From Armatimonadota bacterium (GTDB taxonomy: Bacteria > Armatimonadota > Fimbriimonadia > Fimbriimonadales > Fimbriimonadaceae): DNA of 64,000 bases. Shown here one piece after another: positions 26,516 through 36,422 of this stretch (its first letter is position 1; every line of letters begins with the position of its first letter). Under the pieces are notes generated by a model. That model worked only from the letters and a program-made list of their open reading frames with translations. It did no database searches and was not told the DNA's origin. Location of the stretch: contig JAFDWR010000002.1 in NCBI GenBank assembly GCA_018268355.1, forward strand, positions 248,001 through 312,000, given 5' to 3'. Both the position numbers and the translations under genes were made by a program.

Positions 26516-26917
26516 TCAACCTTTGTTCAAAACTCTGGTCACCGCCCAGCAGATCGCGCTGGCAATCCCGACCGGGAACCAGTATTTGGAGAAGTTGATG
26601 GCCACGATGAAGAAGTCCGTCGGGTCCAGGCGACCGAACAAGGCAAGCATGATGCCTGAGATCCAGAACCCGACGGTCGAGGCCAGGAAACCAATCGCGA
26701 TGGAGGAAAAGACGGCCGTCATTGCCTTGAGGGCCGGGCGACGACTCTCTGACCACCAGTAGTAGGCAAAAGGCAGGTTGAGCAGCGAAAAGAAGACCGG
26801 CCAGAAGTCGAAGTTCATCTGGGCGTCTTTCGGACCGACCGATGTGGTGACGACTGCCACCATAAAAACTGCCAAGTTGGCAAAACAAGCGATCACGACG
26901 GCAGTCTTGGGGCGCAT
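26516..26917 (-). CDS. orphan four-helix membrane protein
   Basis: 133 residues from the ATG at 26917; a TTG at 26944 could add nine. Four membrane helices are seen (VVIACFANLAVFMVAVV; FWPVFFSLLNLPFAYYWW; FSSIAIGFLASTVGFWISGI; WFPVGIASAICWAVT). No motif is recognised. It is on the same strand as the small-membrane-protein cassette upstream, about 125 bases away. Confidence 0.65.
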   Translation of the reverse strand: MRPKTAVVIACFANLAVFMVAVVTTSVGPKDAQMNFDFWPVFFSLLNLPFAYYWWSESRRPALKAMTAVFSSIAIGFLASTVGFWISGIMLALFGRLDPTDFFIVAINFSKYWFPVGIASAICWAVTRVLNKG

Positions 26918-27041
26918 AGAATTGAGAGAAAGAGGCAGGGTCAACGACGAAGACTCCTTGGTCCGGTCAACAGGATGAGCGCTACATGTGTTCGCTTAGC
27001 TCGCGTGAATGCACTCTCGGTTATGGCGTGTGTTCAACTAG

Positions 27042-27461
27042 CTAGGGGAACAAGGAGTTCCGCTCAACATGCTTGAGCAGGACATATCCCATCCCCGAAT
27101 GGGCAAGCGCGATGAGGAGAATGATAACCATTTCGTCCCATCGTTGATAGAGTAGTGACGCGAGGAGTACCAGCGCGTTAACCACACCGAATATCAAAAC
27201 TGGACTGAGAAGAACGACAAAGTAGCCAAGCGTGCCGGAATCTCTCGGCCGAAAGAAGCAGGCGTAAATGGCGATGGAGATCGAACTCAACGCGCTTGCG
27301 GCGCACCGGAAAGCAATGGTTGCGCTGGATGCCTTGATCCATGGCTCTTGCTGCAGCCCCGCCACTTTCAGGAACTGAAATCGGTACGCAAGATAGACGA
27401 TCACCGGCATCGCCATCATGCAGGCGACGGCGAGAATCTTCGCCCTCAGGGTGTAGTTCAG
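27042..27461 (-). CDS. orphan membrane protein, likely CTG start, paralog of next upstream
   Basis: Four-helix membrane protein. The first ATG (27419) would cut into helix one. Reading back 14 codons to CTG (27461-27459) gives LNYTLRAKILAVACMMAMPV and a length of 139 residues. This matches the 138-residue paralog just upstream from end to end (ILKEAGIQQDWIPAS against FLKVAGLQQEPWIKAS). The CTG overlaps the upstream TGA as CTGA. Function unknown. It is the last of five coupled genes. Confidence 0.7.
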   Translation of the reverse strand: MNYTLRAKILAVACMMAMPVIVYLAYRFQFLKVAGLQQEPWIKASSATIAFRCAASALSSISIAIYACFFRPRDSGTLGYFVVLLSPVLIFGVVNALVLLASLLYQRWDEMVIILLIALAHSGMGYVLLKHVERNSLFP

Positions 27462-27874
27462 CGTATCACCCCCTTGTCCTTTGTCCTGTCAACCTCGCCG
27501 TACCACAACCCGATCGCCAGGTGGACCAACCAGAGGGCAAAGGTGGGCAGCAAGACGCCGGGGCCGCGAAAAAGGGCAGGCAGCATCAAGAGCGCATTCG
27601 GGAGGAGCCAGGCCAGGAAGGTGTTGACGCCAATCAGCCATCGGCTGGGGCCAGGGCGCTCCGCGTCCCTCTCCGCCCTCGCGGTGAGGAGGATGATGGC
27701 GATGCACGCTGCGCTTGAGAAGATTTGGGCGGTGGTATAGCTGCGCGAGGCCGGGATCCAGTCCTGCTGGATTCCGGCCTCCTTAAGAATTCCCCCTGCG
27801 CAGAGGAGGTAGACGGCGACCGGTAGCGCGAGTAGCGGAGCGAGGAAGAACTTGCGGTAACTCGTCAAGGTCAC
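27458..27874 (-). CDS. orphan membrane protein, GTG start
   Basis: 138 residues, about four membrane helices. The GTG (27874) overlaps the TGA of the upstream gene as GTGA, with GGAGG just before it. The longer ATG frame to 27979 has no support. It is a tandem paralog of the following gene. The conserved loop after helix one, AGIQQDWIPASRSYTTAQIF, is the best family signature. No function is known to me. Confidence 0.7.
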   Translation of the reverse strand: MTLTSYRKFFLAPLLALPVAVYLLCAGGILKEAGIQQDWIPASRSYTTAQIFSSAACIAIILLTARAERDAERPGPSRWLIGVNTFLAWLLPNALLMLPALFRGPGVLLPTFALWLVHLAIGLWYGEVDRTKDKGVIR

Positions 27875-28098
27875 CCTCCGCTTTGCACGTCGCTGGGACG
27901 GCCCGCGACAATCATGCAGACCACCAGCGGGAGTAGGCACACCTGGGCCAGCGGACCCATGTTGGTCATGCAGACGCAAAGGGCAATATTGCCGATACTA
28001 AGCGCGCTGAGCATCCAATTTCGCCGGAGAAAGCAGAAGTAGACCGCCCAGCCCGCCGAAACGAGCACAAAGATCGAAACGAGGACCATTGCTGCCAT
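27871..28098 (-). CDS. small two-helix membrane protein
   Basis: 75 residues. Two or three hydrophobic segments (MAAMVLVSIFVLVSAGWAVY; NMGPLAQVCLLPLVVCMIVA) with a basic loop FLRRNW. GGAGAAAT precedes the ATG, nine bases after the upstream stop. Its stop overlaps the next gene's GTG. Unrecognised. Confidence 0.65.
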   Translation of the reverse strand: MAAMVLVSIFVLVSAGWAVYFCFLRRNWMLSALSIGNIALCVCMTNMGPLAQVCLLPLVVCMIVAGRPSDVQSGG

Positions 28099-29961: not shown

Positions 29962-32718
29962 TCACTCCTTACCCTCCCGGCGCTTGCGCTTCAGCTCCAG
30001 CAGCCGCTCGGCGGTTGTCTCGTCCGAGGGCGGCGGGGGGACCTCCACCACCGGCTTCTCCGGTCGGGCGGTCAACGAGACCTCCGGCAGCCGCACCCGC
30101 GGGGCATCGACCTGGCCACGCTTCTTGGCCTCTTGCAACCGAGAAATCGGCACTGGAGCCGCCTCGGCGCGCACCCGCGGACGCCGAGTCCGACGACGAA
30201 GCACGAGCCGGCGGACTGCCACATCGATCGGCCAAAGGATCGCCGCCAGAAGGAGGCACTGGAACCAGACCTCCAGCGATGTCACCACCGGCTTACCACC
30301 CGGCCGAAACAATTCGGCCTCGTTCTTCAGAACCCGACCGCCGCTCACCTTGGCGACCTGGTTCAGGAGTCCGAGGTTGGCGGCAACCGACTGATATTCG
30401 GCGGGATACGCCCGGGAAACGCTCTCCACCTGCACGAGCGCGCCGGTCGGTGAATCTTCGACCACGCTCACAATCGTCGTCCCGATCCCAACGTTCTTAA
30501 ACTTGGCGCGGTACTTGCCTGGGGCGACGGGCTCCAGCGGGAGGACCTTCCCTTCCCCGCTCGGCAGGGTGACGCGCACGGAGCTCGGAACCTGGTCGCC
30601 GACGGTGCCGACATCGACGACAACGTCGCCGCCTTGTTGTTCAAGGTTCACCTCATAGCGCGACTGCATCGCCCGGCGCGAAAGGCTTCGGACTGTTTGC
30701 GACCAAAAGACGTCGAAACCTTCCCACCCCGTCCACTTGGCGGCCCATCTCGATTGGGCGTCGGAGGTGAAGGCCATGCTCGTGCCGAGTCCATATTGCC
30801 AGCGCGCCAAAAGCGGGTCGTCCTTGTGGGTGCGCAGGATGGTCGTGGCGAGGGGACGGCTGTCGGTCAGGCAGTAGGCGAGCAGGGGCGGGAGGGCGTC
30901 GAGTCCGCGAACCGCGTCGTCGGTGGCGGTGAGCTTAGGATAAAACGCACCTTCCTCAATGGCGGACCGGGAGATGATGGCGGCGTCTTGCGAGAAGATA
31001 GCGGGAAGCTGCTTCGACTTGAGGGCAAGGTAGTAGCGTCCGCCGCCGATCGCGGCGAGGCGTTGCAGGTCCCGGCAGTATTCGCCCTGACCAAAGGCGA
31101 CAACCGAGGTGGTGATGCCGTCTTTTCGCATCTGGGCGACCCGGCTCATCGAATCTCGCCAGTCGGTGCTGTCCGCGCCGTCGGCAAGCAGGATGAGGTG
31201 GCGAATCTTGCTCGGCTCCTTGGCCAGCTCGGCTTGGGCGGATTCAACGCTGGGCCCGATGTAGATTCCGCCGCCGGTGACGGCGAGGCGACGGATGTTC
31301 TCAATCGCCTTGGTCTTGTCCATCAGGCCGAAGGGTTGGACATATTCGATGCCGTCAGATGACCCTGCCACGGCGAGGCGATCGGTGGGGCCGAGCAGGA
31401 GGGCGGTGGATTCGGCGGCCTTCTTCGCGAGCTCCAGCTTGGGCAGACCGTCTTCGATCATGCCCATGCTGCCCGAGCAGTCGACCATGATGAGGATGGA
31501 GGTCGAGGGGAGGTCTTTTCGCTGGCGAATGTTGAGGTCAACCGGAAGGGCCTCGGCAATCGGAGTGTTGTAGTAGCCGCCGGGGAGGAAGCTGTTTTCG
31601 CCGCCAACCATGATGAATCCGGTACCGGAATCGCGGATTGCGCCTTGGATCATGCGCATCTGAGGCTCGGTGATGAGCGCGGCATTGACGTCGTTGAAGA
31701 TGATCGCGTCGAAGAGGGCGAGCTCCATTGGCCGGATCGGCATCGTCATCGGCGTGAACCGCGAGACGTTCAGCCCTCGGGCTTGGAGTGCGCCAAAGAG
31801 GGGCGTGGCCGCCGGGGTCGCTTCGACGAGCATGACCCGGCTGGGGCCCTTCGCGCTAAGGACGGCCAACCCAGAGTTGTTGCGCTGATCGGTGTCGCCT
31901 TCCGCGGTCATCGAGACGTGGTATCGCCCCAGGCCTTCTCTTTCGACCGGCTCTTCAAAGACGATGACGTTTTCGCCCGGGTTGAGCTGGACGCGCTTCT
32001 TCGTGCGGATCAGGCCGTCACGGTCGAGCGAAAGCTCCGCGCTCATCGGCTTGTTGGCGACGACGCGGGTACGGATGAGGGCCTTTGCACCCACTCGCGC
32101 ATCGCTCGGCGTCTGCAGATCAGCAACGTAGGCTTCGGGTCGAGCGGTCTCGGTGCCGAGGGGCACGATGTCGATGGTGACGCCCTCTGTCGCGGCGATT
32201 TCGGCGGCCTGGAGGAGGTCGCCTTCGGTCTCGTTGCCGTCCGAAAGCAGGACGATCCGTCGGTTTCGGTCGCTGGGGAGCGAGGCAATGCCGAGCCGAA
32301 GCGCAGCGGCAAGGTTCGACCCGCTGGGGTCCACCTTGCTCTGGATTGCCCCGACCGGCCTTGCCCGCGCTGCGGAGTTCTCCATGAGCGGCTGCTGGCC
32401 AAAAGCGACCACGGACCCGAGGTCGTCGTCGCCGAGCTGTTGCATCGCCTGGTTGATGAATTCCTGCGCTCTGGTGCGGTCCGCGCCGGGGATCGAGTCG
32501 GAGGCATCGAGGACAAAGGCCACCGCAAGCCCCTGGTTGCGGAGTCGCATTTCAGGCCCCGCGAGGGCGACCACGAGAGCGATGAGAATCAGGCTGCGGA
32601 TGGCGAGCGCGAGGATCCGCTGGACCTTGCTCATCCCGCGGGCCCGGCGCAACACCCACCACGTCCACCCGAGAAGCGGGACAAGGAGGAGGAGCCAGCC
32701 GGGGGATGTCAACGCCAT
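29962..32718 (-). CDS. double-vWA membrane protein with GATase-like domain
   Basis: 918 residues from the ATG at 32718, which overlaps the upstream TGA (TGATG) behind GGAAGAG. Order: two N-terminal helices; a first vWA domain (AVAFVLDASDSIPG at about residue 75); a beta-sandwich; a GATase-1-like domain (FDAIIFNDVNAA, MVGGENSFLPGGYY); a second vWA (ILIMVDCSGSMGM with an intact DxSxS metal site); and a C-terminal membrane helix with a long basic tail. Such proteins accompany MoxR ATPases and are thought to take part in metal-dependent protein assembly at the membrane. The specific client is unknown. Confidence 0.85.
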   Translation of the reverse strand: MALTSPGWLLLLVPLLGWTWWVLRRARGMSKVQRILALAIRSLILIALVVALAGPEMRLRNQGLAVAFVLDASDSIPGADRTRAQEFINQAMQQLGDDDLGSVVAFGQQPLMENSAARARPVGAIQSKVDPSGSNLAAALRLGIASLPSDRNRRIVLLSDGNETEGDLLQAAEIAATEGVTIDIVPLGTETARPEAYVADLQTPSDARVGAKALIRTRVVANKPMSAELSLDRDGLIRTKKRVQLNPGENVIVFEEPVEREGLGRYHVSMTAEGDTDQRNNSGLAVLSAKGPSRVMLVEATPAATPLFGALQARGLNVSRFTPMTMPIRPMELALFDAIIFNDVNAALITEPQMRMIQGAIRDSGTGFIMVGGENSFLPGGYYNTPIAEALPVDLNIRQRKDLPSTSILIMVDCSGSMGMIEDGLPKLELAKKAAESTALLLGPTDRLAVAGSSDGIEYVQPFGLMDKTKAIENIRRLAVTGGGIYIGPSVESAQAELAKEPSKIRHLILLADGADSTDWRDSMSRVAQMRKDGITTSVVAFGQGEYCRDLQRLAAIGGGRYYLALKSKQLPAIFSQDAAIISRSAIEEGAFYPKLTATDDAVRGLDALPPLLAYCLTDSRPLATTILRTHKDDPLLARWQYGLGTSMAFTSDAQSRWAAKWTGWEGFDVFWSQTVRSLSRRAMQSRYEVNLEQQGGDVVVDVGTVGDQVPSSVRVTLPSGEGKVLPLEPVAPGKYRAKFKNVGIGTTIVSVVEDSPTGALVQVESVSRAYPAEYQSVAANLGLLNQVAKVSGGRVLKNEAELFRPGGKPVVTSLEVWFQCLLLAAILWPIDVAVRRLVLRRRTRRPRVRAEAAPVPISRLQEAKKRGQVDAPRVRLPEVSLTARPEKPVVEVPPPPSDETTAERLLELKRKRREGKE

Positions 32719-34547
32719 CAGCTCTTCCTCGCGTAAACCCACCATTCAAAGCAGAACACGGCGAGCGCCAGCAGGGCAATCCATCGCCAAAGGTCGCCCC
32801 ATTGCGGCGCGTTGAACGCGACAACGGAACTCGCGGGCGCCTGGCCGAGGACGGGCACCCGAGGCAAGAGATTTGACTCGCTGGAGTTGATGAGCGACAT
32901 GCCCACTCGCGCGTTTCGGTTGCCGTCGCGAAGTCGGTACCAGCCCACACGGTCAAGGTTGGAAAGTCGCAGCGTGCCCGTCTCGGAGGTCACCTGGGCC
33001 TGGTCGCCGTCGGGGGTAAAGAGGGTGCCGCGGCTCCAACCCGGCATGACCCAACTCATCCCAGGCTTGAGAATCCCGAGTTCTTCGCCCGACTTACTGC
33101 CCGTCGCGCTCGCCCAACTGACGATGTTCGAGAGCAGGATGGGAAAGGTCGGCTGGAGCGGAAGATCGGAGTCGAGCAGGCTGAACGGGACCACGAGTCG
33201 GCGAGAAGGGCCGGGCGCGGCTTCCGCGAGGAGCGGCCCGTCCGCACTGCTGACCCAAGCGACCGCGCCTGGTTGCAGGTTGAGGCGGGTCATCGACTCG
33301 ATGTAGAGGTCATTCCAACCCGTTCCCTCGGTGAGCGGCCCCTTCTTGGTGCTCGACCAAGGGCTGTTCTTCGTCGTTCCGCTTGGCTCGATGCCGCCTC
33401 CCGCCATCGGCTTCCCGAACGTCACCGCGAACTTCGCTCGGACGGGCCGCTCGGCGACCCCATCAAAGACGACGAGGTCGTAGTTAGAGGGGCCTTCGCC
33501 GGATTCCGACTCGGGGAGTGAGGCAGTGCGGTCAAGCTTGACGCGGGGATCGAGAGCAAGGGCGCGCTCAAGGAAGACGTTGCCCGCCGAGACGAGGAGG
33601 ATCCTCACCGCGCGCCGGTCGGGGCCGAGGGCGAGCGCGACGTTGTCCGTCTTGAGGGCGTCGTCAACATCCAGCTTGCCCTCGAGCCGCGAGACCTCAC
33701 GCCGGAGCGGTAGAGTCGTCGTCCAGGGCTTTCCGGGGTTTAGGACAACATTCAGCTTGGTGAGCGGTTCACCGTCTGCCTCGATGTTGAGGGCAAACTC
33801 CCTCTTCTCCGAGAAGGTGCCGTCCACCGAAATGAGCAGCGCGTCGCCACGCGCCGACGATCCCGCCGCGAAGGCGCGGAAAAAAGCATTGCCTGCCCCT
33901 CTGCCGATAGGGGTGAACGCGGTGGGGATGCCGCCCGGCTTGAAGTCGGCGATGTCGGAGAAGACGCCGTCGCTGAGCAAGATGATCTTCGCTCCGGGTT
34001 GGTTCTTACCGATGGCGGCGGCGAGTTGCATCGCCTCGGAAAGGTCAACTTCGGCGTCGGTGCTCTTGAGCGTCCGGCTTGCCCTTGCGAGGGCCGATTC
34101 GTCGGCAGTAAGTCCGCTTACGATTCGAGTGGTTGTCCCTGATTCGATGATGGCGATTCGCGAGGTGCGCGATTTCGTGGCGATAGACTGGTTGAGCTGG
34201 TTCACCGCCGCATCAAAGCGGCTGGGCTTGACGTCGGTCGCGTTCATGCTCGCGGAGCCATCGACGACGAAGATTGTCGACTCGGTGATGACCGCCGACT
34301 GGGCGACCTGGGGCCGCGCCAGCATGAGGATCGCGAGAAACGCCAGCAGGAGCTGGAGCGCGAGAAGGAGGCTCCATTGCAGCCGCTGAAATGGCGCGTC
34401 GGCGCGCACCGAATCGCGATTCTCGGGCCAGAGAAAGGCCGCCGTGGTCTTCACCGTTTGGTGGCGGATGCGCAGGAAGTACAGGAACAGGATCCCGCCC
34501 CAGAGCGGGATCAGCCCCAACCATGCCAGCGGGTTGGCAAAGGTCAT
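32718..34547 (-). CDS. BatA-like vWA membrane protein
   Basis: 609 residues starting MTFANPLAWLGLIPLW. The N-terminal BatA-type two-helix region (LAWLGLIPLWGGILFLYFLR; LLLALQLLLAFLAILMLARP) is followed by a vWA domain with the metal-site motif VVDGSASMNATD and LLSDGVFSD. The middle is beta-rich, and the C-terminus ends in a membrane helix IALLALAVFCFEWWVY. The start overlaps the DUF58 stop (ATGA). In Bacteroides-type bat operons similar proteins act with MoxR and DUF58 partners in envelope stress; the role here is inferred. Confidence 0.85.
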   Translation of the reverse strand: MTFANPLAWLGLIPLWGGILFLYFLRIRHQTVKTTAAFLWPENRDSVRADAPFQRLQWSLLLALQLLLAFLAILMLARPQVAQSAVITESTIFVVDGSASMNATDVKPSRFDAAVNQLNQSIATKSRTSRIAIIESGTTTRIVSGLTADESALARASRTLKSTDAEVDLSEAMQLAAAIGKNQPGAKIILLSDGVFSDIADFKPGGIPTAFTPIGRGAGNAFFRAFAAGSSARGDALLISVDGTFSEKREFALNIEADGEPLTKLNVVLNPGKPWTTTLPLRREVSRLEGKLDVDDALKTDNVALALGPDRRAVRILLVSAGNVFLERALALDPRVKLDRTASLPESESGEGPSNYDLVVFDGVAERPVRAKFAVTFGKPMAGGGIEPSGTTKNSPWSSTKKGPLTEGTGWNDLYIESMTRLNLQPGAVAWVSSADGPLLAEAAPGPSRRLVVPFSLLDSDLPLQPTFPILLSNIVSWASATGSKSGEELGILKPGMSWVMPGWSRGTLFTPDGDQAQVTSETGTLRLSNLDRVGWYRLRDGNRNARVGMSLINSSESNLLPRVPVLGQAPASSVVAFNAPQWGDLWRWIALLALAVFCFEWWVYARKS

Positions 34548-35419
34548 CCGATCCACCTCTGGGGTCGCCAAACGTCGCGGATGAGCGACTCGATCGTCGC
34601 TCCTGCCTTCACCAACATCGCCTTGCCGCCCGACCGAGTTGCGGCGGCAGAAAGAGTGTTGATATGCGCACTTAGATTTGACCGATATCCCTCGCGAACC
34701 TCGTCGGTGATCGTGGTTGTGCGCATGTGGCCAAGGTCCACGTCAACGAGCTCGAGATCACCGGTCAGGCCGGGGTCGAGTTCGTCTTCAGACAAAACCT
34801 GGACCCACCAAAGCTCCTGTTGTCGCCGAACGAAGGCGCGAAGACTGGATTCGGCGTCGGGTTCGAGCCCGTCCGAGATCAGAATCGTGATTCCTGGGCC
34901 TTTGAGCTGATTGACCACCGCCTCACAGCCTTTGCGAAGGGAATGGGCCTCGCTTGGTTCGGGAATCTCGTCCAGCCAGTGCGCCAACCGCCCCGTTGCG
35001 GTGTAGCCTCGGAGGCTACGAACCGTTCCGCCCCTCCCGATGGCGAACGATTGGAGCGCATCGCCGCCTTGGAGGGCGACAAAGCCAAGGGCACCGGCGA
35101 TGGCGCGTGCGGTTTCCCATTTCGCGGGGTCGTGGCTTGTCATGCTCGCGCTCGCGTCGAGCACCAAGGTGACCTTCAGCTCTTGTTCGTCTTGGTAGGT
35201 GCGCACGACGCGCTGTCCGAGTCGAGCGAGGACGTTCCAATCAAAGTGTCGAAGGTCGTCGCCGTCGGCGTACTCGCGGAAGTCACGGAACTCGTGACTC
35301 ATGCCCTGGGATTGGCTCAGGCGCTCACCATGGGTGCCCACTCCCCTTCGGCGCGGCAAGAGCCGGTAGCGCGATAGCACTTGCTGCTCTTGGGCCGAAA
35401 GACCAGGGAGGACGGCCAT
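34544..35419 (-). CDS. DUF58 domain protein
   Basis: 291 residues, cytoplasmic. The DUF58 hallmark is complete: REYADGDDLRHFDWNVLARL, then VRTYQDEQE, then the vWA-like VTLVLDASASM. It typically partners a MoxR ATPase encoded just upstream, as here (10 bases between them). Probably an adaptor in the MoxR-vWA system. Its stop overlaps the next start by four bases. Confidence 0.92.
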   Translation of the reverse strand: MAVLPGLSAQEQQVLSRYRLLPRRRGVGTHGERLSQSQGMSHEFRDFREYADGDDLRHFDWNVLARLGQRVVRTYQDEQELKVTLVLDASASMTSHDPAKWETARAIAGALGFVALQGGDALQSFAIGRGGTVRSLRGYTATGRLAHWLDEIPEPSEAHSLRKGCEAVVNQLKGPGITILISDGLEPDAESSLRAFVRRQQELWWVQVLSEDELDPGLTGDLELVDVDLGHMRTTTITDEVREGYRSNLSAHINTLSAAATRSGGKAMLVKAGATIESLIRDVWRPQRWIG

Positions 35420-35429
35420 GGCGGTGCGT

Positions 35430-36422
<993 letters not shown>

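What the first reader, a model, noticed from the sequence alone, without database searches (positions are those of the whole stretch)
27419..27461. Probable CTG start codon overlapping a TGA stop
The annotated-style ATG at 27419 would remove half of the first helix. Extending to CTG (27461) gives 139 residues, matching the 138-residue paralog end to end, and forms CTGA with the upstream stop, the same geometry as the GTGA just upstream.
Basis: partly seen in the sequence, partly recalled or inferred. Interest (0 to 1): 0.55.

Follow-up and report, generated by a model that had tools for sequence, protein, structure and literature searches.

The report
Rare CTG start in coupled gene
A small bacterial membrane-protein gene very probably begins at the rare start codon CTG, 14 codons before the ATG that gene-finding software would pick, so its annotated protein would lack about half of its first membrane helix; the arrangement is uncommon but of a known kind.

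Summary
The sequence facts are exact: CTG at 27461-27459 (minus strand), 14 codons before ATG 27419, overlapping TGA 27460-27458 of the gene upstream. A near-perfect Shine-Dalgarno, AAGGGGGTGAT (27475-27465), lies at good spacing. Its pairing energy, -18.2, is the strongest of 102 NTGA overlaps in 28.7% of the genome, and none of 706 canonical starts reaches it; ATG 27419 scores -1.8. Codon usage marks the 14 codons as coding: 0.46% of out-of-frame and 0.37% of intergenic windows do as well. Only the CTG form has the paralog's four hydrophobic segments. The same scan ranks infC, apparently starting at ATA, first and kdpD third as genes without a nearby canonical start. Weaknesses: no ortholog was found, the 14 residues show no residue-level similarity to the paralog, and 3.7% of synonymous resamples give an equally strong SD. 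The "same geometry as GTGA" remark is probably wrong: TTG 27868 suits that gene better. A new member of a known kind.

The parts
27042..27461 (-). Target gene read from CTG: 139 aa, small protein with four predicted hydrophobic segments, orphan
   Evidence: translation; hydropathy; low-confidence AF2 model H4-27, H46-69, H77-104, H108-135; codon score +34.7 bits with best 5' end at 27461
27459..27461 (-). Proposed CTG start codon, overlapping the upstream stop (CTGA)
   Evidence: sequence; SD and codon evidence
27458..27460 (-). TGA stop of the upstream paralog
27465..27475 (-). Extended Shine-Dalgarno AAGGGGGTGAT; three bases (ACG) between it and CTG, seven between its GGGGG core and CTG; also codes the C-terminus of the upstream protein
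   Evidence: duplex energy -18.2 with the standard 16S tail; the same motif by pattern search
27420..27461 (-). The 14 codons omitted by an ATG annotation
   Evidence: codon log-odds +8.05 bits; 0.46% of 2627 out-of-frame and 39 of 10612 intergenic windows reach it
27417..27419 (-). First canonical start (ATG) in the frame; no SD (-1.8)
27448..27472 (-). Possible small hairpin with part of the SD in the stem and CTG in the loop (-7.7 kcal/mol); the 101-nt region is not unusually structured (z -0.97)
27458..27874 (-). Upstream paralog, 138 aa from GTG 27874 or 136 aa from TTG 27868
27866..27868 (-). TTG, the more likely start of the upstream paralog (SD GGAGGGTGA, 27879-27871)
   Evidence: energy -10.0 against -3.1 for GTG 27874

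Best explanation
The gene at 27461-27042 (minus strand) starts at CTG 27461. A 30S or post-termination ribosome is held at the junction by the extended Shine-Dalgarno AAGGGGGTGAT inside the last codons of the upstream paralog, and it initiates with fMet at CTG, whose last two bases are the first two of the upstream TGA. The second paralog is thus made by translational coupling, at a level set by a weak codon offset by a very strong SD. The 139-residue product keeps the full first transmembrane helix. Shown by computation: frame, overlap, SD strength, coding signal of the 14 codons, loss of a hydrophobic segment in the ATG form. Inferred: fMet at CTG, coupling, low or regulated yield, membrane location, and any pairing of the two paralogs.
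For: SD energy -18.2 at CTG against -1.8 at ATG 27419. Among 102 NTGA overlaps (56 ATG, 24 GTG, 13 TTG, 9 CTG) in 773,767 sampled bases this is the strongest SD, the next being -14.0. Of the nine CTGA cases only this one has no canonical start within three codons downstream or anywhere upstream in frame. None of 706 genes with a canonical start near the best coding 5' end reaches -18.2 (minimum -17.5), and this gene end is the only one of 730 at or below -18. The 14 codons score +8.05 bits (79th percentile of in-gene windows; 0.46% of out-of-frame, 0.37% of intergenic windows), and the best coding 5' end is exactly 27461. Four hydrophobic segments in the CTG form and in the paralog, three in the ATG form. 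Method control: the same unbiased scan of 730 genes ranks infC first, apparently starting at ATA with SD -11.5, and a kdpD-like gene third; the target is fourth of 11.
Against: No ortholog, so no conservation test. The 14 residues show no residue similarity to the paralog. Given the peptide VDRTKDKGVIR, 730 of 20000 synonymous resamples give an SD as strong, so the SD could partly be a by-product of the lysine/glycine codons. SD use in this genome is weak overall: 177 well-defined starts have medians of -4.4 to -5.05 by start codon, against -3.9 at random internal positions. CTG is not enriched behind strong SDs in this genome (1.03-fold). The genome lacks a detectable 16S gene, so the standard anti-SD was assumed. 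CTG is a poor start in E. coli by the report of PMC11983097 (citing Hecht et al.).
Confidence: 0.77

Rival explanations
1. The gene starts at the annotated-style ATG 27419 (or ATG 27416), 38 nt after the upstream stop, and the protein has three full transmembrane segments.
For: It is the first canonical start in the frame; the paralog alignment loses almost nothing (score 82 against 84); many genes here start without a strong SD.
Against: No SD (-1.8); the upstream 14 codons look coding; only the CTG form has the paralog's first hydrophobic segment; a 38-nt gap largely or wholly abolished coupling in tested E. coli pairs (PMC10666635, passages read).
Confidence: 0.11
2. The codon in the living population is ATG, GTG or TTG, and CTG is a consensus error or one variant of the assembled genome; the start position is still 27461.
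For: The genome is in 7 contigs with no detectable 16S gene, which fits an assembly from a metagenome (inference); CTGA is one base from the common ATGA, GTGA and TTGA overlaps.
Against: Both frames are intact here; the assembly is rated 97.7% complete, 0.26% contaminated. No reads could be examined.
Confidence: 0.05
3. Another non-canonical codon near the SD is used, such as ACG 27464 or CTG 27449.
For: ACG 27464 has -12.5; CTG 27449 is in frame.
Against: ACG stands closer to the SD than usual; CTG 27449 scores -5.1; CTG 27461 has the better spacing and is where the coding signal starts.
Confidence: 0.04
4. The SD-like run drives -1 frameshifting from the upstream paralog (P-site GGG slipping on GGGGG), giving a fused eight-segment protein rather than a separate one.
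For: The downstream frame is -1 to the upstream one, with a G5 run just before the stop; internal SD sequences can stimulate -1 shifts (recalled).
Against: No X-XXY-YYZ slippery heptamer (by eye); no unusually stable structure (z -0.97); the NTGA-with-SD layout is the ordinary one for coupled initiation.
Confidence: 0.03

Closest known systems
rep of IncFIB plasmid replicons (CTG start; PMC11983097, passages read)
   Same: CTG start with a good ribosome-binding site; widely mis-annotated at a canonical codon (there GTG) exactly 14 codons downstream
   Different: Proved by N-terminal analysis and by CTG to CTC mutation; not described in the passages read as overlapping an upstream stop; a replication protein, not a membrane paralog
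Non-canonical starts with extended Shine-Dalgarno in Staphylococcus aureus: infC AUA, cvfC1 AUU, ccpN AUA (PMC13009471, passages read)
   Same: A weak start codon offset by a very strong extended SD
   Different: AUU/AUA rather than CTG; conserved across species; shown by ribosome profiling and reporters
Streptomyces sigR GTC start repressed by IF3 (PMC5472188, title and start of abstract seen in the search listing)
   Same: Non-canonical start as a possible regulatory point
   Different: Different codon; regulation demonstrated there, only conjectured here
ATGA/GTGA/TTGA (-4 nt) termination-reinitiation gene pairs (PMC10666635, passages read)
   Same: Same overlap geometry and likely coupling
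   Different: First base C instead of A, G or T

Membership tests
Non-canonical (CTG) bacterial start codon | No canonical start within reach at the coding 5' end | tested here: met
   No ATG/GTG/TTG between in-frame TGA 27491 and ATG 27419; best coding 5' end at 27461
Non-canonical (CTG) bacterial start codon | Strong SD at proper spacing | tested here: met
   -18.2, strongest of 102 NTGA overlaps, anti-SD assumed
Non-canonical (CTG) bacterial start codon | Conserved N-terminal extension in orthologs | tested here: inconclusive
   No ortholog: 1 of 85 family, 2 of 113 order and 2 of 113 class genomes matched P0003 (the own genome, plus a 32-residue hit at E 0.007); 1 of 291 phylum genomes with A1, the own one
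Non-canonical (CTG) bacterial start codon | N-terminal peptide, initiation footprint or start-codon mutant | not testable with these tools
   Needs the organism or a reporter
Translationally coupled -4 nt overlap pair | NTGA overlap of stop and start | tested here: met
   CTGA 27461-27458
Translationally coupled -4 nt overlap pair | Downstream translation depends on upstream translation | not testable with these tools
   Needs a two-reporter assay

The most novel reading that the evidence does not exclude
The CTG is a deliberate control point: a weak codon balanced by an unusually strong SD makes the second of two small membrane paralogs dependent on upstream translation and sensitive to initiation factor 3, in a lineage where infC (apparently ATA) and kdpD also lack canonical starts, so that a set of genes responds together to IF3 level.
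Probability: 0.12. Interest if true: 0.5.

Novelty: new member of a known kind. Interest (0 to 1): 0.3.

Why it matters
CTG starts are rarely annotated; PMC11983097 quotes 20 of nearly 85,000 genes (0.024%), citing Hecht et al. (passage read). Gene finders restricted to ATG/GTG/TTG must truncate such proteins; here about half of a membrane helix would be lost. The case suggests that SD strength plus codon usage upstream of the first canonical start can flag such genes without orthologs: the same scan put infC first and kdpD third.

Tried and rejected
Orthologs: P0003 in own genus, family, order and class, the two-row profile A1 in family and phylum, plus genome contigs, viral contigs and plasmids gave nothing beyond the two tandem copies, apart from weak fragments. 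The genus held only this genome. The order and class searches each covered 113 genomes with the same result. Exact-DNA scan of viral contigs: none.

First gene set rejected: greedy longest ORFs put an antisense ORF over the target, so the target was missing from the first NTGA survey (5 CTGA cases, 14 ATGA, 10 GTGA, 7 TTGA). The antisense ORFs score -4.0 and -35.2 bits against +34.7 for the target. A codon-scored gene set replaced it; both counts are given.

General enrichment of CTG behind strong SDs: none (9 of 852 CTG codons in the strong band, 1.03-fold), so the genome does not seem to use CTG starts widely.

Structure: two-sequence AF2 model of low confidence (mean pLDDT 61.8); Foldseek in PDB found nothing at E <= 0.001. 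No Pfam family for either paralog. The 142-aa gene 26516-26944 and the 75-aa gene 27871-28098 are not detectable relatives. The automatic DNA alignment of the two start regions did not line up TTG 27868 with CTG 27461, so a common origin of the two start sites is not claimed.

Full report
What is there. On the minus strand the frame of the target is open from 27488 to the stop at 27044-27042. Its first ATG/GTG/TTG is ATG 27419; CTG 27461 lies 14 codons before it and overlaps TGA 27460-27458 of the upstream gene as CTGA. The upstream gene encodes a 138-residue protein from GTG 27874 or 136 residues from TTG 27868. The two proteins are paralogs (BLASTP E 8e-7, 30% over 92 columns; 0 of 2000 shuffles reach the score). 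Neither has a Pfam family.

Orthologs. None was found. P0003 matched only its own genome in 85 family genomes at E <= 0.001. At E <= 0.01 it matched 2 of 113 order and 2 of 113 class genomes, the second being a 32-residue fragment at E 0.007. The two-row profile matched 1 of 291 phylum genomes at E <= 0.01, its own. In the family search at E <= 0.1 it matched 7 of 85 genomes, the six others only by weak fragments at E 0.013 or worse. Scans of genome contigs, viral contigs and plasmids found none.

Ribosome-binding site. Upstream of CTG 27461 stands AAGGGGGTGAT-ACG. Pairing to the standard 16S tail is -18.2 when at least 3 nt of spacer is left, against -1.8 at ATG 27419 and -1.5 at ATG 27416. 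With shorter assumed tails the value ranges from -16.7 to -6.9. The genome yielded no 16S gene, so the anti-SD is assumed. To set a scale, 773,767 of 2,695,080 bases were read and 730 genes called by codon score. Of 102 gene pairs with an NTGA overlap, 56 have ATG, 24 GTG, 13 TTG, 9 CTG. The target has the strongest SD of all 102 (next -14.0). Of the nine CTGA cases the target alone has no canonical start within three codons downstream or anywhere upstream in frame; the other eight look accidental. None of 706 genes with a canonical start near the coding 5' end reaches -18.2 (minimum -17.5); of 730 gene 3' ends the target's is the only one at or below -18. Against this, 730 of 20000 synonymous resamples of the last 11 upstream codons reach -18.2, so the encoded peptide alone gives such an SD 3.7% of the time. 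SD use is weak overall, and CTG is not enriched behind strong SDs.

Coding signal. Codon log-odds were trained on long genes with the target region left out. The 14 codons score +8.05 bits, above about 79% of 1905 in-gene windows. 0.46% of 2627 out-of-frame windows and 39 of 10612 intergenic windows (0.37%) do as well. The best-scoring 5' end of the gene falls exactly at 27461. The 9 open codons before CTG score -0.7. The log-odds include amino-acid preference and are not a pure synonymous test.

Protein. Kyte-Doolittle windows give four hydrophobic segments for the CTG form (first peak 2.08) and for the paralog. The ATG form has three, its N-terminal maximum falling to 1.24, below the 1.3 cut-off used. 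A low-confidence AF2 model places the first helix at residues 4-27, so an ATG start at residue 15 removes about half of it. The 14 residues do not resemble the paralog residue by residue.

Controls. The scan for coding signal before the first canonical start flagged 11 of 730 genes. The first is infC: Pfam IF3_N at C1 279557-279745, apparently starting at ATA 279811 behind GAGGTGA, -11.5. infC of S. aureus also starts at AUA (PMC13009471, passages read). The third is a kdpD-like gene whose Pfam KdpD domain begins before the first canonical start (E 3.1e-96). The target is fourth. The other eight were not checked by homology.

The upstream start. GTG 27874 is preceded directly by GGAGG with no spacer (-3.1); TTG 27868, with GGAGGGTGA just before it, scores -10.0.

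Mechanism. The ribosome ending the upstream paralog stops with its 16S tail near a nearly perfect SD and with CTG overlapping the stop; it, or a fresh 30S, starts on CTG with fMet (inferred). A small hairpin (27472-27448, -7.7 kcal/mol) could hide the SD until the upstream ribosome opens it, but the region as a whole is not unusually structured (z -0.97). The closest documented case is rep of IncFIB plasmids: a CTG start with a good RBS, generally mis-annotated at a GTG 14 codons downstream (PMC11983097, passages read). Weak codons with extended SDs are described in S. aureus (PMC13009471, passages read), and coupling across such overlaps in PMC10666635 (passages read).

Verdict. CTG initiation is likely (0.77), ordinary in kind, rare in instance. 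What remains open is whether C is fixed in the species, whether initiation can be seen directly, and whether the weak codon serves regulation.

Noticed in passing
own genome C1, minus strand, 279811 (loci L050, L026): infC appears to start at ATA behind GAGGTGA (SD -11.5), 55 codons before its first canonical start: a gene known for non-canonical starts, recovered by the scan.
   Followed up: yes
own genome C1, minus strand, about 9403-9217 (locus L013): A kdpD-like gene whose sensor domain starts 57 nt upstream of the first ATG/GTG/TTG of its frame, just after a tRNA-like stretch (recalled look, not tested); a non-canonical start or a broken 5' end.
   Followed up: partly
window 27868-27866, minus strand: TTG two codons into the upstream paralog is a better start than GTG 27874.
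   Followed up: partly
window 29962-36422, minus strand: MoxR-type AAA ATPase, DUF58, BatA/VWA and VWA/GATase1-like genes in a row, upstream of a run of short genes without a Pfam family above cut-off (29965 down to 26516) that includes the two paralogs.
   Followed up: no
window 27493-27461, minus strand: The last 11 codons of the upstream paralog hold three codons rare in this genome (AGG 4.3%, ACA 3.2%, ATA 1.1% of the codons for their amino acids).
   Followed up: no
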